This document shows positions 9,347-27,143 of a stretch of 64,000 bases of DNA, in pieces. The DNA is from Halobaculum saliterrae. Lineage in GTDB: Archaea; Halobacteriota; Halobacteria; Halobacteriales; Haloferacaceae. The stretch lies in NCBI RefSeq assembly GCF_009831625.1, contig NZ_WUUS01000002.1:186001-250000 (forward strand), given 5' to 3'. A model generated the notes under the pieces. It was not told where the DNA came from, did no database searches, and was given only the letters and a program-made list of their open reading frames with translations. The number at the start of each line of letters is the position of its first letter. Position 1 is the stretch's first letter. Made by a program: the position numbers and the translations under genes.

Positions 9347-9349
9347 ACG

Positions 9350-10417
9350 CTATGCTGGTGCTAGTTCGGCGCTCTCATCGACGCTGTCTTGGATGAACTC
9401 GTAAAACCGGTAGAAGGTGCCGAGGTCGCTTTCATCCTGTGGGAAGATCCTGATTTGGTCCTCGTTTGCTTTGATTCGGAACGTGCTGTTTTTGACTTGG
9501 TCGATAACCTCGGTGGTGAAATACAGCGAACCCTCTTCGGAGTAAGATCCAACAAGCACGTAGTCCCGATCCTGCATGCTATCCTTCAATCCGTCAAGTT
9601 CGTGATATCGGATCCGATTGTTTAGTGTGATTGCTGCTGGCTCGGAGGTAGGGACTTCGAGCTGGGCAGAAGCTGTAATCATCTCGAAGTCGGTGCGCTC
9701 GTACGCCTGCTTCACCTTGAGCGCTTCTTCGATGCAGGTTTCGATGTGCTTGAAGAGGCGCTTCAGGCTCCCGTTCTTGAGCTTGAACACGCCCTCGTGA
9801 TTGATCCGGAAGCAAAGATCACCGGGGACGTTGAACTCCATAATACGGGGGAGCACCCCGTAGTGTTCTTCCATCTCACGAAGGCTCTCAAGCCCATCTC
9901 TGCCGTAGTAATTGATCGTGCGCCACTCCTCGGGTCGGAATCGTGCACTTGTATCAGTGCGCTCTGTCCGCTTGGCTACGAACTCGGTGATCTCAGTAGC
10001 GGGGTCCTCGGAAACGATCTTCTCCCGGATATCTTGGAGGAGGCTAGGACTGATGTACAGGTAGTGGACACCGGGCTTGTTCTCAAGGAATGGTTCGATA
10101 GTATTCTCTACCTCCTCGGTCTTCCGCATGTCCGTGTAGAATAAAATGACGTTATCCTCAACGTCGTAAGAGAGGTAGAATTCCGCTGGCCGGTCACCGC
10201 CGTAGTCACAGCGAATCTTTTGAATTCCTCCGTAGTTCTCAACGATATCGTAGCCGTTATTCCTGAGAAGGTTGAGGAAATCTTCTCGGGAGTATTCAGT
10301 CAGACCGGCGATTACGTAGAGATCGTTCTCGATGAGGGTGTCGTAATGTTCCGCCAGGTAGTGATTGAAGCTCACCCGGTCGGGGAACTCCTGCGGTTCG
10401 ACTTCGAAGACACCCAT
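9350..10417 (-). CDS. hypothetical protein, partner of the nuclease-like gene
   Basis: 355 residues from an ATG at 10417. The sequence is acidic alpha/beta with several strand-like blocks (AEFYLSYDVEDNVILFYTDM, HYLYISPSLL, ICFRINHEGVF-like) and no catalytic motif that can be named. The gap to the next gene is only a few bases, giving a tight two-gene unit with the probable nuclease. It may be a sensor or specificity subunit, but that rests on position alone. Confidence 0.65.
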   Translation of the reverse strand: MGVFEVEPQEFPDRVSFNHYLAEHYDTLIENDLYVIAGLTEYSREDFLNLLRNNGYDIVENYGGIQKIRCDYGGDRPAEFYLSYDVEDNVILFYTDMRKTEEVENTIEPFLENKPGVHYLYISPSLLQDIREKIVSEDPATEITEFVAKRTERTDTSARFRPEEWRTINYYGRDGLESLREMEEHYGVLPRIMEFNVPGDLCFRINHEGVFKLKNGSLKRLFKHIETCIEEALKVKQAYERTDFEMITASAQLEVPTSEPAAITLNNRIRYHELDGLKDSMQDRDYVLVGSYSEEGSLYFTTEVIDQVKNSTFRIKANEDQIRIFPQDESDLGTFYRFYEFIQDSVDESAELAPA

Positions 10418-10491: not shown

Positions 10492-10875
10492 CTAGAACGG
10501 TGCGACGAGCCAGTCACCCTCTTCTTTCCGTTCGAGTTGTGGACCGAAGACCTGCTGTAGGGAGTGCAGCGCATCGTTATAGCGGAGGTCGTAGGTCTTC
10601 CCGCTTCGGTGGAACGTCCCTTCGACGACAAACTGGACGGTCGGGCTTTGATATTCCAAGTCGTTCGCTCGTCGATCCATTGCACGAGCGAGCTCTTCTG
10701 CCACGTCGCCGTCCTCGAACGCGTCACCCAGTCCGACGACGCTGACCTTGTCTGGTACGTCGTCATCTTCTAGGCGCTTGACGAACTCCTCGACCGGCAT
10801 CTGGTGGTCGAACACGTCATACTCGCCTTCGACAATGATGTTGTATCGTCCGGGTATCTGGCCTGGTCCTGCCAT
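10492..10875 (-). CDS. hypothetical protein, head of the leftward trio
   Basis: 127 residues beginning MAGPGQIPGRYNIIVEGEYD. It has a beta-alpha-beta look: N-terminal strand, helix VEEFVKRLEDD, strand KVSVVGLGD, a long helix and a C-terminal strand pair (VQFVVEGTFH). The 74-base gap to the next gene is compatible with one transcript. No family was recognised. Confidence 0.65.
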   Translation of the reverse strand: MAGPGQIPGRYNIIVEGEYDVFDHQMPVEEFVKRLEDDDVPDKVSVVGLGDAFEDGDVAEELARAMDRRANDLEYQSPTVQFVVEGTFHRSGKTYDLRYNDALHSLQQVFGPQLERKEEGDWLVAPF

Positions 10876-12373: not shown

Positions 12374-15055
12374 TCAGTAGCTCGTGATGTCTCGGTCCCC
12401 GAGCACCCGCGTGTACGTGTCGTCGCCGGTCACATCGGCGAGCCGTCCCGCGAGTTCGCGCAGGTCGTCATCGACGTCCCACTTTTCGACGTAGTTCTGG
12501 ACGGCCTGTCCCTTCTCGTAGCGGTAGCGGAGGAACTGAAGCTTGTCGAGATTCGAGAGGTGGTCGCCGCCGTCGCCGTTGACGCGCTCCTGGATGTACG
12601 CCTGTCGCTTCTCGTTGTCCCAGGTGCCGAGTTCGAAGCCGTCGTCCTGATTGTACAGGCGCATCTCCTTGAGTTCCTCTGGCGTGGCGTTCGTCCCGCG
12701 GCAGAGCTTGTTGACGTCGTCGTAGGAGACGTTCGCGGTGTCGAGCAGGTCGATGAAGACGTCCTCGACGCCGATGTCGCTGGCCTCCTGAATGATGCCG
12801 TAGATTTCCTGGACGACCTCCTTCGCGCTCATGATGTCGCCATCGCGCTGCACCTTCTCATGGTGTTTGGAGTACTCGCGGAAACACGCGCCCATCTCCA
12901 TCACGCCGATATCGCCCCGTGAGAGGTCACGTGTCTCTTCGAGTTGTTGACGTGTCCGCCGGGCTGTGCGGTAGATGTCACGCCTGAGGGAGTTCCAAGA
13001 TACCGGTTCTGTTTCATTAATTGGACGCGCCACAACTACAATATCGAATGAAACAGCCTCACCTTTTATGAACTTTTGAATGTCTGCACTAATCGGGTAC
13101 GTTGCAGTAACTATGAAACCAGAGTTACAGACAGAAGTAAGTAGTTCTCCCCAAGAATCGGAATCACTGTGGTGGTATGTGAATGTCAATACCCCATCTT
13201 CTTTCAAACTGTCTCTGAGAACACTAAATGCCTGCCCCAGTTCGGTCTCGAACTCTTCTGCCCCTTTGTTTAGAGCAGGATTAGCAACAATACTCTCTTG
13301 TCGTGGCGTCATCTCTGGCTCAAATTCTTTGTACTCGTCCTTTAGAAGGACTCTTTGCCACACATAAAAGAAATTTGACAGTTCCGAGTAAATAACATTA
13401 TCGTAATACGGTGGATCTGTGATTATCGCATCATAGTCTGAATCTGTAGACATTTCCCTCATATCTCCACATGTAACCTTGCAATTATTACCAAGAGGCT
13501 GACTGAACGGTTCAGTCTCGTGAGTTTCACCGTTTTCAATATACCTTTCAGTGGGAGCATTCGAATATTCAACTCCAGACACTACCATATCCCACATCGC
13601 TGAAAAGCTACCAGCACCATATTCTGATCCCCATACATTTATTTCAACTGGAAGAACCGGTGGTTCAAAAGAGTTTGATTTAAACAGATTTGTTGCTTTG
13701 TTATACGATGCTTGGTATCCACTCATCATATTGTTATAGTTCAAAGATTCTGTCAGGGCGAGCAGGAGAAATTCAGATGTATTTTGATTTTCAATTTCAT
13801 CTATAGATTTCATTATTTTTGCTAGCGACAATAACTGGCGAGAATTAAACATATCTGTCCAGTTATTGAAATTATGTTGGAAGACGTTATTGCCGGTCAC
13901 AGACGAAGACTGGCTTCCATCAACAGTTGCAGTAATAGCCCCCTCAGGGATAGATTCTTTGGGGACATATTCTTTTAGCACTTCAGATCTTTTCCATTCC
14001 TGATTTGCTTCTTGTACCAACTTCAAATCGAAATCATCTACACTCTTATAATTTTTATAATCGCGTCTATCTAGCCCCTCTTCATCACAGGTACTACAAT
14101 AATATTCGATAGCACACAGCTGTTGATTATACCCTCCTTGTTCTTGAATTGCGTCTGTAACCCGATACTTTTGACCACAGTCAGGACAGCTATAATTACC
14201 TCTATTATAATTTCCTTCTTGCGGCACAAAACTAGCCGCACAGTCGTTACATGAGGTCTGGCTTCTCCAGTCCTCCGTATGTACTATTGAATGACAGTCT
14301 GGACAGAGTACTTGATAACCGTCTTGCCCATATCTTGATTTCCCCAACCGGTAATCTTTAAAAAGTGATACAGTATTTTGACAAGAAACACAATCTAATT
14401 GACGGACCCAAAAGAAATACATAACATCTGCTTTATGATCCCCATTCGGACATTCGGTTTTATAGTAACCTTGTATATCGTCAGCGACTTCGTCTTTCAC
14501 TCTATCAAAAGCTTCGTTTAGATCTTCAACATTTGTTGTCCCTGCATCAATTTCTTTGCTTGTTATATACCATGCGACTGGGTTCAAATCATTACCGTGG
14601 CATTCAACACCAAAACGAGAAGCTTCGATGAGTGATGTGCCGCCACCCATAAATGGGTCCAGAATCTTCTTGTCCTCAACGCGAACGTCTTTTGAGTAGA
14701 GTTCCCACAGACTCTCTGGATCCGACATATTGACTCCGTCAATGACCGATGCGATATCGACGGTTTCGTTCTCGGCTTTGTCGCCGTAATCTGCTAGTGT
14801 CCCACTCTCATGACCGGGTTCAAACACCGAGACCTTTTCCGGATCGTCAAGCAGGCTGTAAAGAGAGATGGCACGGAAGACGCAACCGAGTCTTCGTGCC
14901 CACCACTTGTGCATCGTGTAGTTCGGTCGGTAGTACATTTTTGCCCGACCTTCTTTCTCAGCGAGTTCGTTGACACGCTCAATGGGGAATCCACGCTCAA
15001 TAGGGAGTTCCGTCCGCTCCTGCTGGCCCTGTGAAGATCCAGATTGCTCAGACAT
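12374..15055 (-). CDS. DUF1156-type adenine-specific DNA methylase with zinc knuckles
   Basis: 893 residues. The N-terminus (LPIERGFPIERVNELAEKEG then MHKWWARR) is the DUF1156 signature. SAM-binding motif I is DPFMGGGT (133-140) with GNDLNPVAW behind it. The catalytic motif is TDPPY (546-550), as in N6-adenine or N4-cytosine methylases. Between them are five CxxC knuckles (CVSC 222, CPDC 251, CNDC 269, CPDC 290, CSTC 320), which probably form zinc ribbons for target binding. In other genomes DUF1156 methylases sit beside DUF499 ATPases and helicases in defence islands, as here. The central 1.7 kb is far more AT-rich than both ends of the gene, a sign of mosaic origin. Confidence 0.88.
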   Translation of the reverse strand: MSEQSGSSQGQQERTELPIERGFPIERVNELAEKEGRAKMYYRPNYTMHKWWARRLGCVFRAISLYSLLDDPEKVSVFEPGHESGTLADYGDKAENETVDIASVIDGVNMSDPESLWELYSKDVRVEDKKILDPFMGGGTSLIEASRFGVECHGNDLNPVAWYITSKEIDAGTTNVEDLNEAFDRVKDEVADDIQGYYKTECPNGDHKADVMYFFWVRQLDCVSCQNTVSLFKDYRLGKSRYGQDGYQVLCPDCHSIVHTEDWRSQTSCNDCAASFVPQEGNYNRGNYSCPDCGQKYRVTDAIQEQGGYNQQLCAIEYYCSTCDEEGLDRRDYKNYKSVDDFDLKLVQEANQEWKRSEVLKEYVPKESIPEGAITATVDGSQSSSVTGNNVFQHNFNNWTDMFNSRQLLSLAKIMKSIDEIENQNTSEFLLLALTESLNYNNMMSGYQASYNKATNLFKSNSFEPPVLPVEINVWGSEYGAGSFSAMWDMVVSGVEYSNAPTERYIENGETHETEPFSQPLGNNCKVTCGDMREMSTDSDYDAIITDPPYYDNVIYSELSNFFYVWQRVLLKDEYKEFEPEMTPRQESIVANPALNKGAEEFETELGQAFSVLRDSLKEDGVLTFTYHHSDSDSWGELLTSVCNSGFIVTATYPISADIQKFIKGEAVSFDIVVVARPINETEPVSWNSLRRDIYRTARRTRQQLEETRDLSRGDIGVMEMGACFREYSKHHEKVQRDGDIMSAKEVVQEIYGIIQEASDIGVEDVFIDLLDTANVSYDDVNKLCRGTNATPEELKEMRLYNQDDGFELGTWDNEKRQAYIQERVNGDGGDHLSNLDKLQFLRYRYEKGQAVQNYVEKWDVDDDLRELAGRLADVTGDDTYTRVLGDRDITSY

Positions 15056-15175
15056 TATTCAGTATGTAGAAGCGATAACCCAGCAGCCTCATAAGTGTAC
15101 GTTCTTCGCAGTAACGTCTCAGTGAGCGATCTTCATGGGGTGTCTCGAAAGGGGAACGAACGTCGAGGAAGTCGC

Positions 15176-15454
15176 CTACTCCTCTTCAGAGACGAGCGTT
15201 TCGAGGTCAGTCACGTTCTGGATGGCGGTGGACGCCAAGTCATCGTGACCTGTCTCGATGGCGTAGCCGGCTGCTTCAGTCATCGCTTGGACCACTCGTT
15301 CCACGAACAGCGAGTCATCCGTGACGTACTCTCCAGCCACCTGTAGTGCTCGCCGGCTCTTTGTCAACGGTACTTCGGTCACTTCCTCAATCTCACTGAT
15401 AATCTCTAGCGATTCGTCGATCTTCTTCGCTCGGTCGATTGCCATTGTTTGCAT
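15176..15454 (-). CDS. small helical protein upstream of the methylase
   Basis: 92 residues from the ATG at 15454 (MQTMAIDRAKKIDESLEIIS); a second ATG at 15445 is equally possible. The protein is a run of amphipathic helices with regular acidic residues and no cysteine or catalytic motif. A TATA-like TTTAAAAG at about 15487-15494 on the leftward strand suits either start. It precedes the methylase by 120 bases and could be transcribed with it. Function unknown. Confidence 0.65.
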   Translation of the reverse strand: MQTMAIDRAKKIDESLEIISEIEEVTEVPLTKSRRALQVAGEYVTDDSLFVERVVQAMTEAAGYAIETGHDDLASTAIQNVTDLETLVSEEE

Positions 15455-15484
15455 GGGTTGAACCCGAACAACTACAACCGCCAC

Positions 15485-15887
15485 CCCTTTTAAACCTTGA
15501 AGTCAGCTAGCTTATGTTCCCCACAGGAGTTTGCTTAAATGCGTGGTCGGGGTTTAAATCGCCAGAATTTAGCGATTTGCTACTCCGGAGACGACTGGAA
15601 TTCGAGCGAACCCGACGTGGCAAAGATACCCGAAACCCCGCGTCAGGCAACATACCTCCTAGTCGAGAGGAATCGATTTCGATGAATGATTCGTAATAGC
15701 CCCAGGGAATCGTGAACGACGTGCGTTCGGGATAGGAGTGCATCAGAGATACCATTCAGTCCAGACCCGACACCCACTGGCAATCGCTCGAAAACGGTGG
15801 TCGCGCCACGCGTAGCGATCAAAACGGATGCTGCTGTCCGCTACTGGACACCATTTATCATACCATCGCTGGAAGATCTGGCTATCG
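15485..15887. other. gene-free stretch between the small helical gene and the GmrSD-like gene
   Basis: Holds a hairpin AAATCGC (15556-15562) / GCGATTT (15572-15578) and divergent promoters: the leftward TATA near 15490 and a rightward TTTATCATA (15853-15861), about 30 bases before the ATG at 15888. A weak tRNA-like look (GGGGTTTAAATCG) was considered and rejected because no cloverleaf forms. Nothing else was seen. Confidence 0.5.
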
Positions 15888-17726
15888 ATGAAAGCGGACA
15901 CACTCGATCTAAAGGACATCTTTCGGAAAGACACGCGGTACGTCGTTCCACGATTCCAGCGGCCGTACGTGTGGAAGGAGGAGGAACACTGGCAGCCCCT
16001 GTGGGAGGACCTCCAGCTCGTCGTGAACGAGCTGATGGATCGGCAGGCGGATGCAGATACCGATCTCGAACGACAAGAGGCCCAACAGGACACCTCTCCG
16101 CATTTCTTGGGTGCCATCGTCCTCGACCAACAATCGACGCCGACGCAGAAGCTGGAGACACGGGAGATCATCGATGGGCAACAGCGGCTGATTACGCTCC
16201 AAGTCTTGTTGGCGGCTACACATTCCGTAGCGAAGGACTTCGAAGACGACGGATCGGCGTCCTTGGTCGAGAAGCTGATGTACAATGACAAGGACCTCAC
16301 GAGGACGGAGACAGACCGACTGAAGGTCTGGCCCATCGAAGCCGATCAGGACGCGTTCATAGACGTGATGACTCTTTCTGACCCGGAGTCTGAGCACGCC
16401 GAACTCGACGGCGACGACAACTTGGAGGAGTGCTTCCGGTACTTCAGGGATGAAATTCGAGAGTGGGCTGAGTCCGGAAACGAATCCACCGAGGAACACC
16501 TGGAAGCGCTCGTCACGACGATGTGGCATCTGCTCCGCGTCGTCGTCATCGACCTCGAATCCAACGACGATGCACAGGTGATCTTCGAGACGCTGAATGC
16601 TCGTGGAACACCGCTACTCGCAGCCGATCTGATCAAGAACTACCTCTTCCGGGAGGCCTCCGTTCAGCACAACGACCCAGGTGAACTGCACGACAAGTAC
16701 TGGAAGCAGTTCGACGAGGACGAGTGGCGCGTCGATGTCTCTCAAGGGCGTCTTGACCGTCCGAAGATAGACGTGTTCATCATGCACTGGCTCACGATGG
16801 AGATGAGCCAGCAGGTTCGCGCGAAGAAGCTCTTCCCGGCGTTCCGAAAGTACCTCGACAGGACCGACCACTCTGTCGAGGAGATCGTCAAGGACATCGA
16901 CTACTACGCGTCCATCTACGAGACCATCTCTGAGCCAGACCGTGGGTCTCGGGAGGGGATCTTCTTCCATCGGCTGGACATCCTCGACACAACGACACCG
17001 TATCCGGTTCTGCTCTGGATCTTCGGCCACGAGGATATCCCGAAGCAACAACGCGTGAAAGCCGTCGAAGCCATCGAAAGCTGGCTGATGCGTCGGATGC
17101 TTTCTCGACTGACGTCGAAGAACTACAACAAGATATTCATCGAACTACTGGACGAGCTTAAGGAGCGAGACGACGAGCCCGTCGGAGACGTTGTCGTCCA
17201 GTTCTTCCGGAGCAAAGAGGGCGAGAGCGACTATTGGCCTGGTGACGAGAAGCTGACGGACTCGATGGTCAGTATGGAATACTGGGCCGTCATTAACCAG
17301 CGACGCCTCAAGATGGTGTTCGCAGCCATCGAACGTGAGTTACGGAACACCGGATACAGCGAAACGGTGGAGTTCACGCAGGACCTGGAGATTGAACATA
17401 TCCTTCCGCAAAAGTGGTCCACACACTGGTCGCTTCCGGGTGAACGACCTGCCGAAGTCGAACGAATCGAGCGCGACGAGGCGAAGAACCGAATCGGGAA
17501 CCTGACGATCCTCACCGACAAGCTGAACCCCTCTATCTCGAATGCAGCCTGGGACGACAAACGAGAAGCGATTCAGGAACACACCGTCCTGCGTCTGAAC
17601 AAGCACTTGGTTACGGACTGGCCCGACGAATGGAACGAGGAGACGATTGCCGAGCGTGGCGAGTGGCTCGCTGCGCAAGCGAGTGACGTTTGGCCGGAAC
17701 CAGACGCAGAGTACTGGGACAGGTAG
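15888..17726 (+). CDS. GmrSD-like fused DUF262-DUF1524 modification-dependent nuclease
   Basis: 612 residues from the ATG at 15888, chosen because the TATA box is correctly placed and MKADTLDLKD is the family's normal start. The DUF262 part shows VPRFQRPYVW (20-29) and the nucleotide-binding REIIDGQQRL motif near residue 95. The C-terminal DUF1524 part carries the HNH-type pattern EIEHILPQKW (about 500) and NRIGNLTILTDKLN. Fused GmrS-GmrD proteins cut glycosylated or otherwise modified phage DNA in an NTP-dependent way. It is transcribed against its neighbours, lying between the methylase and the DUF499 ATPase. Confidence 0.9.
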   Translation: MKADTLDLKDIFRKDTRYVVPRFQRPYVWKEEEHWQPLWEDLQLVVNELMDRQADADTDLERQEAQQDTSPHFLGAIVLDQQSTPTQKLETREIIDGQQRLITLQVLLAATHSVAKDFEDDGSASLVEKLMYNDKDLTRTETDRLKVWPIEADQDAFIDVMTLSDPESEHAELDGDDNLEECFRYFRDEIREWAESGNESTEEHLEALVTTMWHLLRVVVIDLESNDDAQVIFETLNARGTPLLAADLIKNYLFREASVQHNDPGELHDKYWKQFDEDEWRVDVSQGRLDRPKIDVFIMHWLTMEMSQQVRAKKLFPAFRKYLDRTDHSVEEIVKDIDYYASIYETISEPDRGSREGIFFHRLDILDTTTPYPVLLWIFGHEDIPKQQRVKAVEAIESWLMRRMLSRLTSKNYNKIFIELLDELKERDDEPVGDVVVQFFRSKEGESDYWPGDEKLTDSMVSMEYWAVINQRRLKMVFAAIERELRNTGYSETVEFTQDLEIEHILPQKWSTHWSLPGERPAEVERIERDEAKNRIGNLTILTDKLNPSISNAAWDDKREAIQEHTVLRLNKHLVTDWPDEWNEETIAERGEWLAAQASDVWPEPDAEYWDR

Positions 17727-17809
17727 ACTCCGACAGACCATTTCCCACCGATATCGTCGAGTTAGCAAGTAACCGAACAGGCTATTCGGTATGCTGCGGA
17801 TGATCCAGT

Positions 17810-18022
17810 ATGACTGACTTGCTCGAAATACGAGACGACGGAGAGTTCGTGATTTCTGGAACGGTGAGTCGAGATGAGCTTGAGGCGGAACTGACACCGC
17901 TGAATCCGCGCAGTTTGTTCGATAGACGACTGAAAACTGTTCTGAGGGATATGCTGGATGAGGCGGACGGTGACGAGATCCTCGTCGAGGCGTTAGTCAG
18001 AAACGGCGATACTGAACCGTAG
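17810..18022 (+). CDS. small acidic hypothetical protein
   Basis: 70 residues: MTDLLEIRDDGEFVISGTVS, then DELEAELTPLNPRSLFDRRL, ending with an acidic helix. It lies 83 bases behind the GmrSD-like gene on the same strand and ends nine bases from the convergent DUF499 gene. Composition and position suggest a real small gene, but no motif is recognised. Confidence 0.55.
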   Translation: MTDLLEIRDDGEFVISGTVSRDELEAELTPLNPRSLFDRRLKTVLRDMLDEADGDEILVEALVRNGDTEP

Positions 18023-18031
18023 AAGACGCGG

Positions 18032-21000
18032 CTACTTCTGGAAGCTGATCTCGATCTTCAGACTTGACGCCTCTTCCGGCATTCGCTCGAAGAGGTCTTG
18101 CACCTTCGTGTAGTCCTGTTCGGATCGCAACGTCAAGCTGACCTGTGTGCGCTCGACGTCGGCGGTCCCCTGAAGAGCACCGGGAACACCCTCCCTGTCG
18201 GGCAGCATGAACGTGACGTCGCCGTATTCGACGCTCCCCGTCTGGTGGTCGTTCCGCCACTTGCTCCGCATCGCGGCGACGTCGTCGCCGTTGTACTCGA
18301 AGCGCCACGTGTCAGCCTCCGTGTCGGCCTTCCGGAACGGGTAGCCAGGCACCCAGTCCGAGGCCTTGTCCGACCCGGTCGTGTTAACCACGTACTCCGG
18401 CTCCTCGTCCTTCCCGATGTTCTCCAGCAGGTACGTCCGCACCATGTACTCAGTAACGCTGTCGTCGAAGCGGTCGGTGACCTTGTTCACGGTAAACTGG
18501 TCACCCGGATCCAGATCCTCGATGTACGAGAGTATCTGGTCACCGATCCGGTCCGATACTGTCGGGACGATCTTCACCGTCGTCGGCTCACGGTCGCCCA
18601 GCGATGCCAGATACCTGCCGCCCGCCTCCAGTACGTAGTCGTCAACGAGGAACTCGTTGACCGCCTCGCGGGCGACGGACTCGGTCTCGTCCGGTGGGAG
18701 GAATACCGCTTCGTCCGCACGTATTTCGCCGATGATCGTGTCAAGGTTCGCGTAGCCGTCGTCGTCGATGTGCGCTTCGATTCGGTCCACGAGAGAGGAC
18801 GCGCCGATGACCGTCGCGCTCCCGACATCACGGACCGTGGCGTCGGACTGCGGCTTGTCGAGGATCTCATTGCCGCGCACGATGACGTACTGATCCTCGC
18901 GGTTCAGGCGACCGATAGCTCGCATTACGACGTCGTGGCTGTCGCCGTCGATCCAGATCTCGCCGTCTTCAACGAGTTCCAGTTCAAAGTCTCCGATATC
19001 GAGCGCGGTCGTCCCGCTCCCGAAGCGCTGTCGGAGTTCCTGTTCAACGTCATCGACGCCCCACACGTCCACGTCGTCCTGCTGGACGAGCACGGTGTCG
19101 AGCGAGCTTCCGGAGAGATCGTCACGGAACCCGCCCGAGTCACGCGCCAGTACCGGCTTCCCATCGAGCGCTTCGACTGTCGCGTTCAACACGTCGTTCG
19201 CGCTTCCGGGGATCGGGAACTCCGGGTCACGGAGGAACTGTTCGTAGATGTCTTCGACCGAGATCTCTCCGCGTCGATCCAAGAGGTCTTCAGCGATCTC
19301 CCAGACGTGTGACTGAAGATCGAACGGGTCAGCAGCCGCTGAATTCCCGATGTTCGTCGCGTCGAGTTCGGCGTCGACGAGGACGAAGACATCGAGATCC
19401 ATCGGCTCCACTTTCGCCCACTCGTCGTCATCCAACAGGTTATCCCCATCGAGCACCTCGCCGTACAGGAGTTGAAGCTCTTCACGGAGTTCGTTCTCCT
19501 CCTGCTCCTTCATACTCTGAATCGACGTCCGGATTTCGTCATCGAGCGACTCGTCCGCGAGTACCTGCCGCGCACCCTCGATATACCGCGCCTTGTCGAT
19601 GTAGCGTGTGCCTGACTCGATGGCCTTGTCGCCCGAAGGTTGGACGAACACGAGCGTGTTGCGCCACTCGCGTCCGCGGCCATCGTTGGTGATGACCTTC
19701 TTCACTTCCTCCTGGCTCCACTGGCTGTCCTTTACGACGATTTTGACGTCGCGGTCGTCCGGGATGTCTCGCATGTCGTTTGTCCGGAACCCGACCGGGT
19801 ACGCGTTCGAGCCGAAAATATCCGTGATGAAGTCCGCAATCTCGGCTTTTGCCGATGTCTCCGACACGTCCACGGCTGCGTTCCGGATGAGCGCGTTGGG
19901 GTTCTGTCGGTCCCGGATGGCGTACTTCCCGTTGAGCTTATGGAGGTGCCACGCGACGCCGTGCAATCGTTCGAGGTTGAGGACGACGTCGGAGACGAGG
20001 TCACCAGTCTGGTAAGCACCCATCACGATCTCTGATACCTCCGCGCCCTCACCTTCGCTCGGCTTCAGTGAGTACAGCAGAATCGTGTTCAGTATGCGCC
20101 GACCGTGAGGCACTTCATCGGTGTCAATACGGCTTTTGATGTCCCCGGTGGCGGCGTTCAGCCGTTCGTAGTTGATCTTCGCCAGTTCGTCTTCGAACTC
20201 GATGGCGTCGATGTCGCCGTGCGTGATCAGGTCCGTCTGATCCTGCATCTGCAAGAGGACCTTCGAGAAGAGGTAGATCATCCCGCGCGTGTTCTGGTTC
20301 CCCTCGTCGGCGTAGTAGCGCGTCTCAAGCGCATCCAGAAGCACGGGATGGAACGGGTAGAGGTCGTGCATCTCCGACAGCAGGTCGTCAGGCAGATCGA
20401 CGTGCCCCTCTGCCTGATCGTACGCGTCGAAGTACCCATTGACGATCTCGCGGGCAGCACTCTCGTCTACGGAATCGATCAGGCGGTGGCGGAGGACCTC
20501 GCGCTTGTCCACCTGGTTATTCATGTTGACCTCGACCGCCTGTTCCCGATTCAGAATGTCGTGAACCTCGGACCCTTCGCGAAGCACCGAGACAATGGTG
20601 TAGAGTTCGAGATCAGAGAGCGCCGTCGATTCGAGCAGCGACTGGAGGAACGCTTTGTTTGCGCTCTTGCGGTCGCCCTGCAGCGTGTCGAACCAATCCT
20701 CCAGCTCGTCCACGAAAAATGCGACTGTGTCGTCGCCGACGGCCTCCTGAATAGTCTGCATATCGGGATACCCACCCGAGTTGAACGTTCCAGGGTCGTA
20801 GTCGAGCGCCTCGAAGAACGGCTCCCAGAGGTACTCGTACTGTTCGTTCTGCATCGCAACCGTGATCGGCGTCGCCGACTCCGGAAGTGCAGCGTCGAAC
20901 CCTTCGACCGAGTCATTCGCCCACGTTCCTGCCGCCGCGGGATCATCGAAACAGTGGTACAGCGCCACCATCTGGTGAGACTTCCCACTGCCGTACGGGC

Positions 21001-21247
21001 CGTAGAGAATGTGTGTCCCGCGTGGATCGTCGCCAGTGAGCGAATCACGAAGGATGGCGAGGGCCTCTCGAAGGCCCTGTGTCATCAGCGTCCGCTCGAA
21101 GAAGAGGTCCGCATCAGACTCGAACTCCTCGTCGTCGTCAACGTTGTAGAGTTTTACCTGTCCATCGATCTGCCCTTCTTCTCGAAGCTCACGGCTGAGG
21201 GTCACCGTGTCTTCGAGAGTGTTTGATAAGGATCCCGTCTGTGCCAT
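18032..21247 (-). CDS. DUF499-type large P-loop ATPase (BrxC/PglY-like)
   Basis: 1,071 residues from the ATG at 21247. Walker A is GPYGSGKS (83-90) with HILY before it. Walker B-like FFVDELEDWFDT follows near residue 160. The remainder is a long acidic helical protein ending in repeated beta-rich modules (VEYGDVTFML, TQVSLTLRSEQDY, LKIEISFQK). Large DUF499 ATPases occur with DNA methylases in BREX/Pgl-like and other modification-based defence systems. The start is separated by 145 bases from the divergent SNF2 helicase gene, so one control region could serve both arms. Confidence 0.85.
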   Translation of the reverse strand: MAQTGSLSNTLEDTVTLSRELREEGQIDGQVKLYNVDDDEEFESDADLFFERTLMTQGLREALAILRDSLTGDDPRGTHILYGPYGSGKSHQMVALYHCFDDPAAAGTWANDSVEGFDAALPESATPITVAMQNEQYEYLWEPFFEALDYDPGTFNSGGYPDMQTIQEAVGDDTVAFFVDELEDWFDTLQGDRKSANKAFLQSLLESTALSDLELYTIVSVLREGSEVHDILNREQAVEVNMNNQVDKREVLRHRLIDSVDESAAREIVNGYFDAYDQAEGHVDLPDDLLSEMHDLYPFHPVLLDALETRYYADEGNQNTRGMIYLFSKVLLQMQDQTDLITHGDIDAIEFEDELAKINYERLNAATGDIKSRIDTDEVPHGRRILNTILLYSLKPSEGEGAEVSEIVMGAYQTGDLVSDVVLNLERLHGVAWHLHKLNGKYAIRDRQNPNALIRNAAVDVSETSAKAEIADFITDIFGSNAYPVGFRTNDMRDIPDDRDVKIVVKDSQWSQEEVKKVITNDGRGREWRNTLVFVQPSGDKAIESGTRYIDKARYIEGARQVLADESLDDEIRTSIQSMKEQEENELREELQLLYGEVLDGDNLLDDDEWAKVEPMDLDVFVLVDAELDATNIGNSAAADPFDLQSHVWEIAEDLLDRRGEISVEDIYEQFLRDPEFPIPGSANDVLNATVEALDGKPVLARDSGGFRDDLSGSSLDTVLVQQDDVDVWGVDDVEQELRQRFGSGTTALDIGDFELELVEDGEIWIDGDSHDVVMRAIGRLNREDQYVIVRGNEILDKPQSDATVRDVGSATVIGASSLVDRIEAHIDDDGYANLDTIIGEIRADEAVFLPPDETESVAREAVNEFLVDDYVLEAGGRYLASLGDREPTTVKIVPTVSDRIGDQILSYIEDLDPGDQFTVNKVTDRFDDSVTEYMVRTYLLENIGKDEEPEYVVNTTGSDKASDWVPGYPFRKADTEADTWRFEYNGDDVAAMRSKWRNDHQTGSVEYGDVTFMLPDREGVPGALQGTADVERTQVSLTLRSEQDYTKVQDLFERMPEEASSLKIEISFQK

Positions 21248-21392
21248 CTTGATACTTAAACAAAGTTCAGTGGCACCCAATAAACACTATGGTCCCAATG
21301 AACAGAGCCGGAGGCTCAACAACAGTACTGCGTACCGATCCACGATTGTCGGTCACAAAACGTATTTTACGCACACCTGTTTCTACGAACGT
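21248..21392. promoter_or_regulatory. divergent promoter region of the DUF499 and SNF2 genes
   Basis: 145 bases between two divergent start codons. A rightward TATA-like GTATTTTACG (21362-21371) is about 25-30 bases before the ATG at 21393, giving a leaderless transcript. The leftward side has an AT-rich TACTTAAACAAAG just before the DUF499 ATG. Shared control of the two genes is likely. Confidence 0.5.
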
Positions 21393-23147
21393 ATGAGCGG
21401 GTACGACCTCGTCGATATCGAGGTCACACACGAGTCTGCAGACGATCTCCTGGATTCGCTGTCTGAAGACGGTGCTGAGGGAGACCATCTACAGAGTATC
21501 CAAGCTGTGCGTCTCCAAGCCGGCCAACCGGACTCCGAACTTCGGTCGTTGAAAGAGCTGGACGAAAACTCCGTCAAGCTACTGGAACACCAAGTGGATG
21601 CGGCTTATCGGGCCCTCTTCGAGATGGACGGAAAAGCACTCCTGGCTGACGAAGTCGGCCTCGGGAAGACAATTGAGGTCGGGATGATTCTCAAGGAGAT
21701 GCACTTCCGTGAAACGGACGAGTCCGTCCTCATCCTCACGCCCGCACAACTGGCCAAGCAGTGGCAGGCAGAGCTCCGTGAGAAGTTCGGACTCGACTTC
21801 ATCTGCAACTACGACGACGAATTCGAGGACTTCGACGCCCATGACTACATCATTGCGAGCATCGATACTGCGAAGAGCGAGCGACACCGCCAGACGGTTC
21901 TCGACCGCGATTGGGATGTTCTGGTACTTGATGAGGCACACTACGTCAAGAACGAAGAGACGGACCGCTACGACCTGATTGACCGGCTCGCATACAACTA
22001 CGCGTTCTTCCTGACTGCGACGCCGATTCAGAACGAACTGACTGACCTGTACAACGTCGTCTCGCTACTCCGCCCCGGACTGTTCGGCACACGCGATGTC
22101 TTCCACCAGTACTTCGTGAACAGCAATCAGGAGACGCTCGTCAACCGAGACGAGCTACAGGATCGGCTGAACAAAGTGATGATCCGGAACCGACGGGAAG
22201 ACACGGACATCGACTTCACGGACCGGACTATCGACACACGGACGTTCGAGCCTACCCCAAAGGAACGCGAACTCTACCAAGCAGTCTCTGACTACGTCAA
22301 AGGCGCGTACAGTCAAGACCAGGGACAGAAGCTCGTACTGATGCTCCTTCAGAAGGAGGTCGTCAGCAGCCCGGTCGCGCTTAAGCGGACCATCGAGAAG
22401 CGACTCTACGAACAGTCGGAGCTCACGCACGCGGACGAACTGGAGACCATCTTGGATCTGATCGATGAGATCGATACGGTGACAAAACAGGAGCGGCTCT
22501 TGGATATCGTCGAAGAAGCCCGCGACAACGTCGAGATGGGGAGAGTCATCGTCTTCACTCAATTCCGAGCAACCCAACAGCAGATCCTCGACAGACTCGT
22601 CTCAGAGGGATACACAGTACACGCCTTCCACGGCGGTCACTCCAGCAGTGAGAAAGAACAGATTGTCGAGGATTTCGAAGAAGAGGGTGGAATCCTCGTT
22701 TCAACCGACGCGATGAGCGAGGGGCGAAACTTACAATTTTGCAACATGTTGGTAAATTTGGACTTGCCGTGGAATCCGATGCGTGTCGAACAGCGTATCG
22801 GTCGGATACATCGAATCGGGCAGAAGCGGGACGTCTTCATCTTCAATATGGCGTTGAAAGATACGATCGAGGAGTACGTACTTGAGCGATTGTATCATAA
22901 AATTGATCTATTTCAGCAGAGTGTTGGAGAACTGAGCTCGATCTTGAGTCGCTTGGAGGAATCGGGCACAAGTTTCGAAGACCAAATTTTCGAGCGGCTA
23001 ATGAACGCTGATTCCGAAGTCGAGCTTGAGAACGACTTCGATGCGATGGCTGTTAACCTCCAGGAACAGCGCGAGCTCGCCGACAAACTTGAGGAGTTCA
23101 ATAGCGGCGTGTTCGAAGGGTTTGACCTGGGGGAGAGCGATGACTGA
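21393..23147 (+). CDS. SNF2-family helicase of the defence island
   Basis: 584 residues from the ATG at 21393; an upstream in-frame start at 21207 would overlap the DUF499 gene and is rejected. Motifs in order: DEVGLGKTIE (I), ILTPAQLAKQW (Ia), LDEAHYVKNEE (II), LTATPIQNELTDLYN (III), HAFHGGHSS and STDAMSEGRNLQ (IV-V), QRIGRIHRIGQ (VI). This is the HepA/RapA-like branch of SNF2 ATPases, which move along double-stranded DNA. The same branch supplies the helicase of DISARM class 1 (DrmD). The next gene starts inside its 3' end, so the two proteins are co-translated. Confidence 0.9.
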   Translation: MSGYDLVDIEVTHESADDLLDSLSEDGAEGDHLQSIQAVRLQAGQPDSELRSLKELDENSVKLLEHQVDAAYRALFEMDGKALLADEVGLGKTIEVGMILKEMHFRETDESVLILTPAQLAKQWQAELREKFGLDFICNYDDEFEDFDAHDYIIASIDTAKSERHRQTVLDRDWDVLVLDEAHYVKNEETDRYDLIDRLAYNYAFFLTATPIQNELTDLYNVVSLLRPGLFGTRDVFHQYFVNSNQETLVNRDELQDRLNKVMIRNRREDTDIDFTDRTIDTRTFEPTPKERELYQAVSDYVKGAYSQDQGQKLVLMLLQKEVVSSPVALKRTIEKRLYEQSELTHADELETILDLIDEIDTVTKQERLLDIVEEARDNVEMGRVIVFTQFRATQQQILDRLVSEGYTVHAFHGGHSSSEKEQIVEDFEEEGGILVSTDAMSEGRNLQFCNMLVNLDLPWNPMRVEQRIGRIHRIGQKRDVFIFNMALKDTIEEYVLERLYHKIDLFQQSVGELSSILSRLEESGTSFEDQIFERLMNADSEVELENDFDAMAVNLQEQRELADKLEEFNSGVFEGFDLGESDD

Positions 23148-24291
23148 CGCTTCGATTACTGTCACGCAATCTGTGGTAGAGCAGTTCACAGAACGGTATC
23201 TCCGCTCTATCGGCTGTTCCATCGAGCGAAGTGACGATCACTGGGTGGTGTCGGTACCCGATGATACGGACACCGAGATCACCCACGGGAGACACACACT
23301 TGTCCGTGGGGAGGGTACTCCAGAGGATGACAGCACGAAACGGCTGAATCCGGAGAGTGCGTTCTTTCAACGGCTACTCCGTGAGGCGGGTGAACGGTCA
23401 CCTTCTGGCAAGCTGTCGATAGAGAGTGAATCCGACATCGAGATCCCGGGGTGGATCCAAAACGGCGCTGTCGAGGTACAGGGCGCTCAGTTCACTCCGT
23501 ACTACGACCGTACAGCTATCGTAATTCTCTTTCGTGTCGGTATCGAGACCGTCAGTGAATACCAGCAAGAGCTTCTCCGCGCCGTCGCTGTGGACGCACG
23601 GTCGGAAGAGCACCTGCCGAGATTGGCGGAGAGTTTCCTCGAACGAACATCGATAGAGGCCAACGAAGTCTTCGCTGGCAACTCACAATTGGCAAAGGAG
23701 GAGGCACGACCACTTCTCGATGCGGCTCGTGATCTGCTACTTGACGGAATACAACACCGACTCGACGAGATCCATCAGGAAGCCTCGCGTGCTGCAGATT
23801 CAGAAGTTGAAGAGTACCGCCAGATGCAACAACAGCGTATCCAGGAACTACAGGAGGAACACTCGAACTTGTCGTCGAAGATCGACGACCTAAGTGAGAA
23901 GATCAACACTGGAGACGAGGACTCACGCGTTCAAGCACTTCGAGAACGTAAAGAACTCAAATCGGAGTACGAGGAACTTGACGAGACGCTCGACGAGTTG
24001 TGGGAGCGTCGTGATAGTGGGTTCCCCGAGCGACAACGAGAAATCCGAGAGAGGCACTCACTCGACGTGAAGGTCACGCCGCTTACTCTGACTGAAATCG
24101 AGTACGAGCGAGGTGAGGTCGATTTCGAACTCATTGACGGTAACATAAATCAAACCGTTACTCTTGGATACGGGAGTGGGATCGGTGTAGCCGATACTGT
24201 CCGATGTTCGGCGTGTGAACAGGAGCTCTCTGAACACAACCCGATTCAAACGATTTCGAACGGTCTCGAATGCCGGAGTTGTACTGAATGA
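23140..24291 (+). CDS. coiled-coil protein with C-terminal zinc ribbon, partner of the SNF2 helicase
   Basis: 383 residues from the ATG at 23140, eight bases before the helicase stop. Residues 1-200 are alpha/beta. Residues 215-300 are a long coiled coil (EEYRQMQQQRIQELQEEHSN, DDLSEKINTGD). The C-terminus has CSACEQEL and CRSC, a four-cysteine zinc site. The overlap with the helicase gene implies a fixed complex. A DNA-binding adaptor is the natural guess; no family name can be given. Confidence 0.75.
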   Translation: MTDASITVTQSVVEQFTERYLRSIGCSIERSDDHWVVSVPDDTDTEITHGRHTLVRGEGTPEDDSTKRLNPESAFFQRLLREAGERSPSGKLSIESESDIEIPGWIQNGAVEVQGAQFTPYYDRTAIVILFRVGIETVSEYQQELLRAVAVDARSEEHLPRLAESFLERTSIEANEVFAGNSQLAKEEARPLLDAARDLLLDGIQHRLDEIHQEASRAADSEVEEYRQMQQQRIQELQEEHSNLSSKIDDLSEKINTGDEDSRVQALRERKELKSEYEELDETLDELWERRDSGFPERQREIRERHSLDVKVTPLTLTEIEYERGEVDFELIDGNINQTVTLGYGSGIGVADTVRCSACEQELSEHNPIQTISNGLECRSCTE

Positions 24292-24712: not shown

Positions 24713-25549
24713 ATGACCGCCGCGACCCACCCGATCGACAGCTGTACCGTTACTCCTGACTCCGCTCCTCGTGGAGCCCTGCCGCTGGTTGAGCCGCAGG
24801 CAGCACATCAAGCGTTCCTCACAAATAATCCGAACGTCCACTCGGTCGTGCTCAAACTCCCACACGTTGAGCGGCTCGTAAACCAGGGAGAGACTGCTGA
24901 CTCGTACTTCCCAGACTCCATTGCGGTTATCACGACATCAACGTGCCGCGATGAATACTTAAGCGAACTTACAGTACAACGAGAGGCAGCTCTGATCCGG
25001 GCGTTCGATCCCACGGTACACATCCCGTTTGATGTGCCTGTGTATCGCTCTACATCGCGTGTGGAGCGTCGCGAGCGGATCCGCCAGCAACTCAGGGGGA
25101 CTGCCCGCGTGGCAACGGAACTGGCTGACACGGATATCAGCCTCCTCCCATTGATAAAAGGCACCTGCAAGGAGGAGTGGCAAATCTACCATCGCTTCCT
25201 CCAACACAACGACATCCACGTTACCGCCATATACGGTACCCAATACTTCAGCAGCGGCGCGGGGCTGCGGCCTCTCAGGGAGGATATCATGACGATAGTC
25301 TCGATCATGCCGGATCTCGAAGTCATCCTACTCGGGTTGCTGTATCCACCGTACCTCGAGCAGCTTCCTCCACAGGTCATCGCAGCCAGCGGGTTGCATC
25401 AGTGGCGGACCCGCTGCGATCTTCGTGAGGGCTCCATCAAACAGACTCACGAAGAGTATGGCCGACTCAAATCGGAGGTCAACGCCACCCTCGGTGAGAG
25501 TCAGATGCCGCTTTCGACGTGGGTTGAGGATACGGGGGTCACCGCATGA
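24713..25549 (+). CDS. unrecognised protein, first gene of the CBASS-like operon (possibly TIM-barrel/TGT-like)
   Basis: 278 residues. The body alternates hydrophobic strands and amphipathic helices in a way that suggests a TIM-barrel: AVITTSTCRDEYL, PTVHIPFDVPVYRS, ISLLPLIKGTC, VTAIYGTQYFSSGAG, DLEVILLGLLYPPYL, QVIAASGLHQWR. The DVPVY and GTQYFSSG blocks recall tRNA-guanine transglycosylase-like proteins, but the cysteine zinc site of TGT is not seen. Its stop overlaps the CD-NTase start (ATGA), so it belongs to the operon. It is not a standard CBASS gene such as cap2 or cap3. The function is unknown, which makes it the most interesting unknown of the window. Confidence 0.72.
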   Translation: MTAATHPIDSCTVTPDSAPRGALPLVEPQAAHQAFLTNNPNVHSVVLKLPHVERLVNQGETADSYFPDSIAVITTSTCRDEYLSELTVQREAALIRAFDPTVHIPFDVPVYRSTSRVERRERIRQQLRGTARVATELADTDISLLPLIKGTCKEEWQIYHRFLQHNDIHVTAIYGTQYFSSGAGLRPLREDIMTIVSIMPDLEVILLGLLYPPYLEQLPPQVIAASGLHQWRTRCDLREGSIKQTHEEYGRLKSEVNATLGESQMPLSTWVEDTGVTA

Positions 25550-26604
25550 TGGGCGGTGGCTTCTCCACCGGTCACGAGTACCAGACTCGGGGCCGCGGAG
25601 TGTCCGGGCAAGGTTCCGGCGCTGGATCTGGAACGAGGATCGACACGTTCGTCGACGAAGGCGATACTGTCGACGACGCGTACGATGAGTTTGCTGAGGA
25701 CACCACAATCACCGACCGGCAAGGAGAGACAATATCTGCCCGACGGGATGTCATCGTCGCAATCCTTGAGGAGGACCTCTCGATCAAAGAGTCACAACTT
25801 ATCGGCTCGTTCACTCGCGGGACAATGGTGGGGCCGCTGAAGCAGGACTCCGACGCAGATATCATGATCGTGCTCGACGCGGATGAGCATCGACAATGGA
25901 CTACTCAGCGCAACGGTGCCACGAACGCACTGCGGGCTGTCAAACGGCGTATCGAGAACGACCCGCGGTTCGCCGATACTGAGGTGACCATTGACCAGAA
26001 CGTGGTGAAGGTACGCTACCACGACTCGACACTGGAGATCGCCCCAGCGTTTGACTACTCCGAGGTCCCGCACGCAGAGCACCCACGAGATGGGTTCAAC
26101 CTATTCAACGACGCCAGCGATGGCTATGCGATCCCCGATACACACGGGTCCGATTCGTGGATGGGGACGAATCCTCGTGCCTATAAGAACGAATTCGAAG
26201 CGCGTGACCAAGCTCACGATGGTCGTGTCTCTGGCCTCACGCGGATGATGAAAAAGTGGTCCGACAACAATGAGGTCCCCGTTCGGTCGTACCACATGGA
26301 GATCATGGTCCACAACTACTTCGCTGAGAAGGCCCGGACCGGCGAACGCGTCCCCAGCAACTACCATGATCTCGCAATGGACTTCATGCAGTCGCTTCCT
26401 GACCGAGTCCGTTCGACGACACGAGAGCCAATCTACGACGAAGCGGTCGATGGGGGTATGTCACGTGAAGAGCGTGAGGCCGCTGCCCGTAAGGCAGAGT
26501 CTGCAGCAGACACGCTTGACGAGGCTGCGGCGGCGAAAGAACGTGGGGATACTGCAACGGCAAAACAGCGTCTGAAAACTGAGTATGGGGAGGGATTCCA
26601 GTGA
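25546..26604 (+). CDS. CD-NTase (cGAS/DncV-like nucleotidyltransferase) of a CBASS-like system
   Basis: 352 residues. After a Gly-rich start, the catalytic strand-helix shows GSFTRGT (87-93), followed by DSDADIMIV with metal-binding D103 and D105. A third acidic position lies in STLEIAPAF (E164). The C-terminus has the family's closing helix pattern (AAKERGDTATAKQRL, then YGEGFQ). CD-NTases make cyclic di- or tri-nucleotides on phage infection, which switch on an effector that disables the cell. The gene is coupled to the gene before (ATGA) and the one after (GTGA). Confidence 0.9.
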   Translation: MMGGGFSTGHEYQTRGRGVSGQGSGAGSGTRIDTFVDEGDTVDDAYDEFAEDTTITDRQGETISARRDVIVAILEEDLSIKESQLIGSFTRGTMVGPLKQDSDADIMIVLDADEHRQWTTQRNGATNALRAVKRRIENDPRFADTEVTIDQNVVKVRYHDSTLEIAPAFDYSEVPHAEHPRDGFNLFNDASDGYAIPDTHGSDSWMGTNPRAYKNEFEARDQAHDGRVSGLTRMMKKWSDNNEVPVRSYHMEIMVHNYFAEKARTGERVPSNYHDLAMDFMQSLPDRVRSTTREPIYDEAVDGGMSREEREAAARKAESAADTLDEAAAAKERGDTATAKQRLKTEYGEGFQ

Positions 26605-27143
26605 CCGGTGAGATTGAGGGGGACTCTGGACTCACTACAGACCTAGAAGACCGTGTTGTGAACTGTGCGGACAATGTACTGCACACGTATAAGGGCCACT
26701 TCGAGGCCGCCGACACATACAGCGACCGTGGAAGGCAGCTTGATTTCGTCACGACGTTCGGTGCTGCCATCCTTACGGTTGCGCTTATCTGGAACCAGGC
26801 CCCGGTCATCGTTCCGATCGGGATTGCAGTCGTCACTGCCGTTGCATCTGCGTACAAAACGATGACAAATCCAGATCAGACCGCGAGCAAGCACTATCGT
26901 GCAGGTGAGGCGTACTTACGGTTATTAGACGATATCAAGGACTACATCGCGCTTGAATTTAACGCAGATACTGAGTACGAGGAGTTGGAGCGCAGGTATC
27001 GAGAACTTGCTGAGCGGAGGCAGGATTTGAACGAGGACATGCCTCAGCTGAATCGGAAATGGTACGATCGTCTCGACGAGTCAACAATCTACGACGAGAT
27101 TGAGACTACTGAGGAAGCGAAGCGTCGACTCCTCAACCGGTAG
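26601..27143 (+). CDS. SLATT-domain membrane effector of the CBASS-like operon
   Basis: 180 residues starting at a GTG that overlaps the CD-NTase stop (GTGA). An N-terminal helix (VLHTYKGHFEAADTYSDRGR) is followed by two transmembrane helices, about residues 47-63 and 67-84 (FVTTFGAAILTVALIW and VIVPIGIAVVTAVASAY), and a long charged C-terminal coiled region. This is the SLATT layout, a family predicted to open membrane pores in response to nucleotide signals. With the CD-NTase next door, membrane disruption on infection is the natural inference. Confidence 0.85.
   Translation: MTGEIEGDSGLTTDLEDRVVNCADNVLHTYKGHFEAADTYSDRGRQLDFVTTFGAAILTVALIWNQAPVIVPIGIAVVTAVASAYKTMTNPDQTASKHYRAGEAYLRLLDDIKDYIALEFNADTEYEELERRYRELAERRQDLNEDMPQLNRKWYDRLDESTIYDEIETTEEAKRRLLNR

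What the first reader, a model, noticed from the sequence alone, without database searches (positions are those of the whole stretch)
12374..24291. DUF1156 methylase, DUF499 ATPase and SNF2 helicase with zinc partner: a candidate modification-based defence system
The window shows a DUF1156-type methylase with five CxxC knuckles, a 1,071-residue DUF499 ATPase, and a divergent SNF2 helicase co-translated with a coiled-coil zinc protein. It has the parts of BREX or DISARM (methylase, large ATPase, helicase) but no PglZ, BrxL, DrmA, DrmB or PLD gene. It may be a distinct, incompletely described archaeal system.
Basis: partly seen in the sequence, partly recalled or inferred. Interest (0 to 1): 0.78.

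Follow-up and report, generated by a model that had tools for sequence, protein, structure and literature searches.

The report
Haloarchaeal BREX-like restriction system with McrBC
Salt-loving archaea carry a mobile seven-gene defence cluster in which a swappable DNA-marking enzyme, a large ATPase and a DNA motor travel with a dedicated McrBC DNA-cutting pair, which suggests a variant of the BREX family of virus defences whose cutting part has been exchanged; no experiment has tested it yet.

Summary
The four genes are real, at the stated coordinates, and co-occur in haloarchaea. In about 56 of 392 haloarchaeal genomes the DUF1156 methylase, DUF499 ATPase, SNF2 helicase and zinc coiled-coil protein sit with an McrB-McrC pair (window 5197-8186) and a new 128-aa protein (10492-10875). 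McrC is in 55/56 system genomes and 1/24 controls. Among 72,556 plasmids it is on 11, all with the DUF499 gene. Gene order is reshuffled between clades but membership is kept. Six proteins share one history. The methylase does not: its target-recognition region (about 50% identity) is swapped freely on an otherwise near-constant machine. The core trio is known (Hma; DUF499-centred 'BREX-related' systems, NAR 2026). The McrBC-linked, split-helicase, PglZ-less form was not found described in the papers I could search. Closest relatives sampled are DUF499-DUF1156 loci with a PglZ-like gene, so McrBC may replace PglZ as nuclease. Best reading: a BREX-like modification-based restriction system, methylase as interchangeable specificity subunit, McrBC as effector (inferred, about 0.55). 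GmrSD (15828-17726) and a CBASS operon are separate neighbouring cargo.

The parts
5197..6426 (+). mcrB: AAA+ GTPase, NxxD signature (N238-D241); no recognisable modified-base reader domain in its ~95-aa N-terminus
   Evidence: Pfam AAA_5 9.8e-18; McrB structures 3.5e-12; near-invariant Walker A/B and NMSD
6426..8186 (+). mcrC: McrC nuclease subunit, PD366...D380-S-K382 active-site motif
   Evidence: Pfam McrBC 3.4e-9; motif near-invariant in 46 homologues; linked to the system in 55/56 genomes and 11/12 plasmids
10492..10875 (-). c4: conserved partner of 127 residues (128 codons), unknown fold class
   Evidence: cluster c4 present in 50 of 59 fetched loci, several misses at stretch ends; AF2 pLDDT 90.5; no family or PDB match
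12374..15055 (-). DUF1156 DNA methylase (probable N6-adenine; motif I DPFMGGGTS, motif IV DPPYY), five CxxC pairs, hypervariable TRD at residues 326-525
18032..21247 (-). DUF499 AAA+ ATPase, 1071 aa
21393..23147 (+). SNF2 helicase (RapA/DrmD/BrxHII type) without fused nuclease; start inferred from homologue length
23140..24291 (+). zinc-ribbon coiled-coil partner of the helicase (C356/C359/C378/C381), overlaps the helicase gene by 8 bp
15828..17726 (+). GmrSD type IV restriction enzyme: cargo in the DUF1156/DUF499 gap, not a core part (13 of 40 clade A loci, no shared history)
   Evidence: Pfam GmrSD_N 4e-38, GmrSD_C 3.9e-25
8201..10417 (-). two unknown genes (381 and 355 aa) in the McrC/c4 cargo slot, in 4 of 40 clade A loci
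   Evidence: no family match
24713..27143 (+). neighbouring CBASS operon (TGT-like, CD-NTase, SLATT 2TM effector): separate system

Best explanation
A seven-gene, mobile, haloarchaeal restriction system of the DUF499-centred BREX-related kind: mcrB, mcrC, c4, DUF1156 MTase, DUF499 ATPase, SNF2 helicase, zinc coiled-coil partner. Proposed working: the DUF1156 MTase recognises a short DNA motif through its exchangeable TRD and methylates host sites. The same MTase, through its conserved C-terminal region, docks on the DUF499/SNF2-Zn machine and gives it its target sequence, as PglX does in BREX. An unmethylated motif on incoming DNA starts ATP-driven scanning or translocation, and McrB-McrC, which has replaced the PglZ or fused nuclease of relatives, cuts the DNA. 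Shown here: membership, conservation and co-inheritance of the seven genes; swapping of the MTase alone; conserved catalytic motifs; absence of PglZ. Inferred: methylation of adenine, complex formation, that McrBC is the effector, and antiviral activity.
For: Co-occurrence of the four genes in the same 392 genomes with co-localised, reshuffled maps that keep all members. McrC in 55/56 system genomes, adjacent in almost all (the MAG G013 has it on another contig), vs 1/24 related genomes without the system, p = 8e-18. In 72,556 plasmids this McrC occurs on 11, all also carrying the DUF499, p = 2e-45. Within clade A the distances of SNF2, Zn, McrB, McrC and c4 track DUF499 (Mantel rho 0.80, 0.80, 0.54, 0.76, 0.75; p <= 0.009), while the MTase (0.07) and GmrSD cargo (0.11) do not. 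TRD 326-525 about 50% identical against about 90% in the C-terminal part; pairs with DUF499 99% but TRD 41%, and the reverse. No window of the other six proteins co-varies with the TRD. McrC PD...DSK, McrB and MTase motifs near-invariant. DUF499 and MTase trees put the McrBC-linked genes next to PglZ-linked ones, and PglZ is absent from all 56 loci.
Against: No experiment. Co-inheritance fits co-mobility as well as joint action. One system genome (G250) lacks McrC, and the Halosegnis marinus plasmid has DUF499 without an McrC match. The trees have only a Type-2 outgroup, long branches and quick support values. PglZ identity of the relatives' gene rests on sub-threshold profile matches and motifs.
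Confidence: 0.55

Rival explanations
1. Two systems that travel together: a BREX-related methylation system restricting unmodified DNA by an unknown nuclease, and an independent Type IV McrBC that attacks viruses carrying foreign modifications (layered defence).
For: Type IV enzymes are known BREX companions (BrxU/GmrSD, PMC8565348), and GmrSD really is loose cargo here. McrBC is its own convergent transcription unit in the window.
Against: Unlike GmrSD, this McrBC is nearly obligate (55/56 genomes, 11/12 plasmids), almost never found without the system (1/24 genomes, 0 other plasmids), shares the DUF499 history (rho 0.76), lies between MTase and SNF2 in clade C, and its McrB has no recognised modified-base reader domain.
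Confidence: 0.3
2. An ordinary Hma / Type-1 BREX-related system whose helicase gene has split, with McrBC a hitch-hiker.
For: Closest PADLOC models include HmaB 1.5e-37, HmaC 5e-19, HmaA 1.9e-57.
Against: No fused REase; the zinc protein shows no detectable similarity to the C-terminus of the one haloarchaeal fused helicase compared or to DrmD/HmaA profiles; DUF499 and MTase are far closer to PglZ-linked than to PLD-helicase haloarchaeal loci.
Confidence: 0.1
3. Chance or generic defence-island clustering of unrelated genes.
For: The window is a defence island (CBASS, GmrSD, McrBC).
Against: Fixed membership with shuffled order over three clades and many genera, and correlated gene histories.
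Confidence: 0.02

Closest known systems
DUF499-centred BREX-related (BR) systems, Types 1-3 (PMC12839542)
   Same: DUF1156 N6-MTase, DUF499 ATPase, Swi2/Snf2 helicase; no BrxL; archaeal distribution
   Different: McrB/McrC instead of fused REase (Type 1), HKD + DUF3780 (Type 2) or PglZ + iSTAND (Type 3); helicase without nuclease plus a separate zinc coiled-coil protein; extra 128-aa gene. McrBC is not mentioned in that paper.
Hma (HmaABC), PADLOC (PMC8565338)
   Same: helicase, methylase and ATPase; best profile matches for the methylase and the ATPase
   Different: HmaA profile is 1176 aa; here a 584-aa helicase plus separate zinc protein, and McrBC linked
Haloarchaeal DUF499 - PglZ-like - DUF1156 - c4 loci (L159-L163; pHLAC01 of Halorubrum lacusprofundi)
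   Same: nearest sampled DUF499 and MTase relatives; three of the five loci carry a clear c4 homologue, two a divergent one
   Different: PglZ-like gene, no McrBC, no SNF2/Zn pair in the stretches fetched
McrBC linked to DNA methyltransferases or DISARM-like cassettes (PMC11090510)
   Same: that census reports McrB clades associated with DNA MTases, or with a DISARM-like set (its figure key lists SWI2/SNF2 and PglX-like MTase)
   Different: details deferred there to a later paper; DUF499 not mentioned
DISARM class 1 / ARMADA (PMC12458937)
   Same: SNF2/RapA-type helicase and DNA methylase
   Different: no YprA-type helicase (DrmA/ArmC) or DUF1998 protein; methylase is DUF1156, not a PglX/YeeA type

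Membership tests
DUF499-centred BREX-related (BR) system | DUF499 ATPase + DUF1156 MTase + Swi2/Snf2 helicase in one locus | tested here: met
BR Type 1 / Hma | helicase with C-terminal PD-(D/E)XK nuclease (79% of taxa) or a nearby nuclease | tested here: inconclusive
   no fused REase in the SNF2 or Zn proteins; McrC would be a nearby PD-(D/E)XK nuclease, which the paper allows in general terms
BR Type 2 | HKD nuclease on the helicase and a DUF3780 gene | tested here: not met
   no PLD or DUF3780 match in locus proteins
BR Type 3 | standalone PglZ (near universal) and iSTAND | tested here: not met
   no PglZ at any of 56 loci and none in G000; c4 shows no similarity to BrxF-type iSTAND
BREX | PglZ with BrxC/PglY ATPase | tested here: not met
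DISARM | DrmA, DrmB (DUF1998) and DrmC (PLD) | tested here: not met
   only the helicase resembles DrmD (5.9e-85), NCBIfam cut-off missed by far (284 vs 610-950 bits)
McrBC Type IV restriction | McrB NxxD GTPase plus McrC PD-(D/E)XK nuclease | tested here: met
McrBC Type IV restriction | restricts modified DNA via an N-terminal reader domain on McrB | tested here: inconclusive
   ~95-aa N-terminus without known domain; activity not testable here
BREX-like mode of action | methylase alone sets specificity of protection and restriction | tested here: inconclusive
   sequence evidence supports it; needs methylome and infection assays

The most novel reading that the evidence does not exclude
McrBC, classically a Type IV enzyme that cuts modified DNA, has been rewired as the dedicated nuclease of a BREX-like system that cuts unmodified DNA, replacing PglZ, with an exchangeable methylase as the only specificity subunit.
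Probability: 0.45. Interest if true: 0.8.

Novelty: new variant of a known kind. Interest (0 to 1): 0.6.

Why it matters
What cuts the DNA in BREX and its relatives is an open question. The 2026 survey argues that REase, HKD and PglZ replace one another as nuclease; a fourth replacement, McrBC, would support that strongly and link Type IV restriction with BREX. The natural MTase swaps let specificity be tested directly: swap the methylase, read the methylome, see which DNA is restricted. A platform may exist: genome G163, whose contig sizes match Halorubrum lacusprofundi ATCC 49239, carries this system on a 525,943-bp replicon. A laboratory strain of that species lost 38% of its secondary chromosome and the megaplasmid, with most defences, and is virus-sensitive and genetically tractable (PMC10544981); whether the lost part includes this locus was not mapped here.

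Tried and rejected
GmrSD as the system's nuclease: present in only 13/40 clade A loci and without shared history. PglZ hidden elsewhere in the locus: none. Zinc protein as the split-off C-terminus of an HmaA/RapA helicase: no sequence or fold support. c4 as BREX iSTAND: Foldseek's top hits are P-loop folds but not significant (best E 0.05), and profile comparison with three BrxF proteins is negative. Zinc protein or McrB as specificity subunit: no co-variation with the methylase TRD. System outside haloarchaea: a two-pattern scan of 84,980 species gave 44 loci, all Halobacteria, and the c4 profile gave no clear hit outside haloarchaea in a 177-genome phylum sample. Phage records: no match. The SNF2-Zn pair also occurs in a second, different cluster (L164-L169), left unexplored.

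Full report
The observation. The four genes exist as described. The window is G000:C2:186001-250000 of a haloarchaeal genome. The methylase carries motif I (DPFMGGGTS), five CxxC pairs and motif IV (DPPYY), the order expected of an alpha-class adenine methylase with its target-recognition region between the motifs (sequence; the adenine assignment is inference). The DUF499 protein has intact Walker motifs (GPYGSGKSH, FFVDELEDW). The SNF2 protein is a RapA/DrmD/BrxHII-type motor that ends after its helicase core and carries no nuclease.

What was missed. DUF499, zinc, DUF1156 and SNF2 searches were run over the same 392 Halobacteriales genomes. Eighty stretches were fetched, gene-called with the window and clustered. 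In 59 loci of three clades the four genes are accompanied, where the stretch reaches, by an McrB/McrC pair and a 128-aa protein (c4). In clade A (DUF499 75-97% identical to the window) the layout is McrB-McrC > < c4 - MTase - DUF499 < > SNF2-Zn; in clade C (about 47%) McrBC lies between the MTase/DUF499 and SNF2/Zn halves; in most of clade B DUF499 abuts c4. Order changes, membership does not. Clade B and C loci carry one to three DUF1156 genes for a single DUF499 gene.

Is McrBC part of it? Searching McrC in 56 system genomes and 24 system-less genomes of the same genus and family gave 55/56 and 1/24 (Fisher p = 8e-18). Distances to the nearest core gene, read from those coordinates, are at most about 6.5 kb, except in the fragmented MAG G013 where McrC is on another contig. 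The 56 genomes are those with near full-length DUF499 and further system genes; two more genomes (G211, G327) carry an orphan or degraded DUF499. Independently, in 72,556 plasmid records the DUF499 is on 12 haloarchaeal plasmids at full length and the McrC on 11, all 11 among those 12.

Who co-evolves with whom. In 44 clade A loci, pairwise distances of SNF2, Zn, McrC, c4 and McrB correlate with DUF499 (Mantel rho 0.80, 0.80, 0.76, 0.75, 0.54), whereas the methylase (0.07, p = 0.27) and the GmrSD cargo (0.11) do not. The methylase's variation sits in residues 326-525 (about 50% identity) while residues 701-893 are about 91% identical. L201 and L096 share 99% DUF499 but 41% TRD; the window and L194 share 95% TRD but 92% DUF499 and 58% Zn. 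No 100-residue window in the other six proteins co-varies with the TRD (maximum rho 0.17, median 0). So the DNA-sequence specificity very probably resides in the methylase alone, and the rest is a constant machine: the logic of BREX PglX and, in older terms, of Type I specificity subunits (inference from established knowledge). The fast-evolving zinc protein (56% mean identity) tracks the machine, not the TRD, so it is more likely adapting to something else, for example viral inhibitors (inference).

Relatives and the nuclease. The DUF499 and MTase of this system form supported clades whose nearest sampled relatives are haloarchaeal loci L159-L163 with DUF499, a 297-312-aa protein, a DUF1156 MTase and c4 or a divergent c4. 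That protein has PglZ-type motifs (SDHGY, HGG) and weak but repeated PglZ profile matches. One such locus lies on pHLAC01 of Halorubrum lacusprofundi. PglZ is absent from all 56 McrBC loci. Together with the near-invariant PD...DSK motif of McrC, the simplest account is nuclease replacement: McrBC where relatives have PglZ, a fused REase or HKD. This is inference; co-mobility of two separate systems is the main rival.

Structure. c4 models confidently (pLDDT 90.5) but matches nothing solved; the zinc protein models as an alpha/beta N-terminus, a long coiled coil and a C-terminal zinc-ribbon region (pLDDT 85) with no fold match.

Known or new. The trio is Hma (PMC8565338) and the BR systems (PMC12839542), so the kind is known. 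The BR paper does not mention McrBC. The McrBC census (PMC11090510) reports McrBC clades tied to DNA methyltransferases and to a DISARM-like system and defers them to a later paper; part of this linkage may therefore be known to those authors. Searches of the held library found no description of the McrBC-DUF499-DUF1156-SNF2-Zn set; many subscription papers and all supplements were out of reach. Distribution appears confined to Halobacteria, with plasmid carriage and patchy, cross-family presence indicating mobility.

Noticed in passing
window 24713-27143: CBASS operon: TGT-like protein (PADLOC 3e-74), CD-NTase (NCBIfam CBASS_cyclase_b 1e-76) and SLATT_4 2TM effector, overlapping genes; looks like a type IV-like CBASS without the OGG gene.
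   Followed up: partly
window 15828-17726: GmrSD type IV restriction enzyme in the gap between DUF1156 and DUF499; that gap is an accessory slot holding different genes in different genomes.
   Followed up: partly
L164-L169, e.g. L166:6911-18002: A different haloarchaeal cluster: SNF2 (53-58% identical to the window's), a 676-1186-aa protein that in part resembles the zinc partner, a weak Mrr_cat-like protein, and in three loci a second helicase (ResIII type) with further small genes. No DUF499 or DUF1156 in the stretches fetched.
   Followed up: no
L159-L163; NC_012030.1 97421-103918: Compact DUF499 - PglZ-like - DUF1156 - c4-like operons with no SNF2 helicase in the fetched stretches, unlike published Type-3 BR systems.
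   Followed up: partly
L223:4815-8353: Clade C locus on a Halorientalis litorea plasmid has a second AAA ATPase (780 aa)/McrC-family (401 aa) pair, and a TATA-binding protein gene, next to the core.
   Followed up: no
window 27303-28304: 333-aa protein with a VapB-like N-terminus (3.4e-6) downstream of the CBASS operon.
   Followed up: no
window 8201-10417: Two adjacent unknown genes (381 and 355 aa) recur as a pair between McrC and c4 in four clade A loci; no family match.
   Followed up: no
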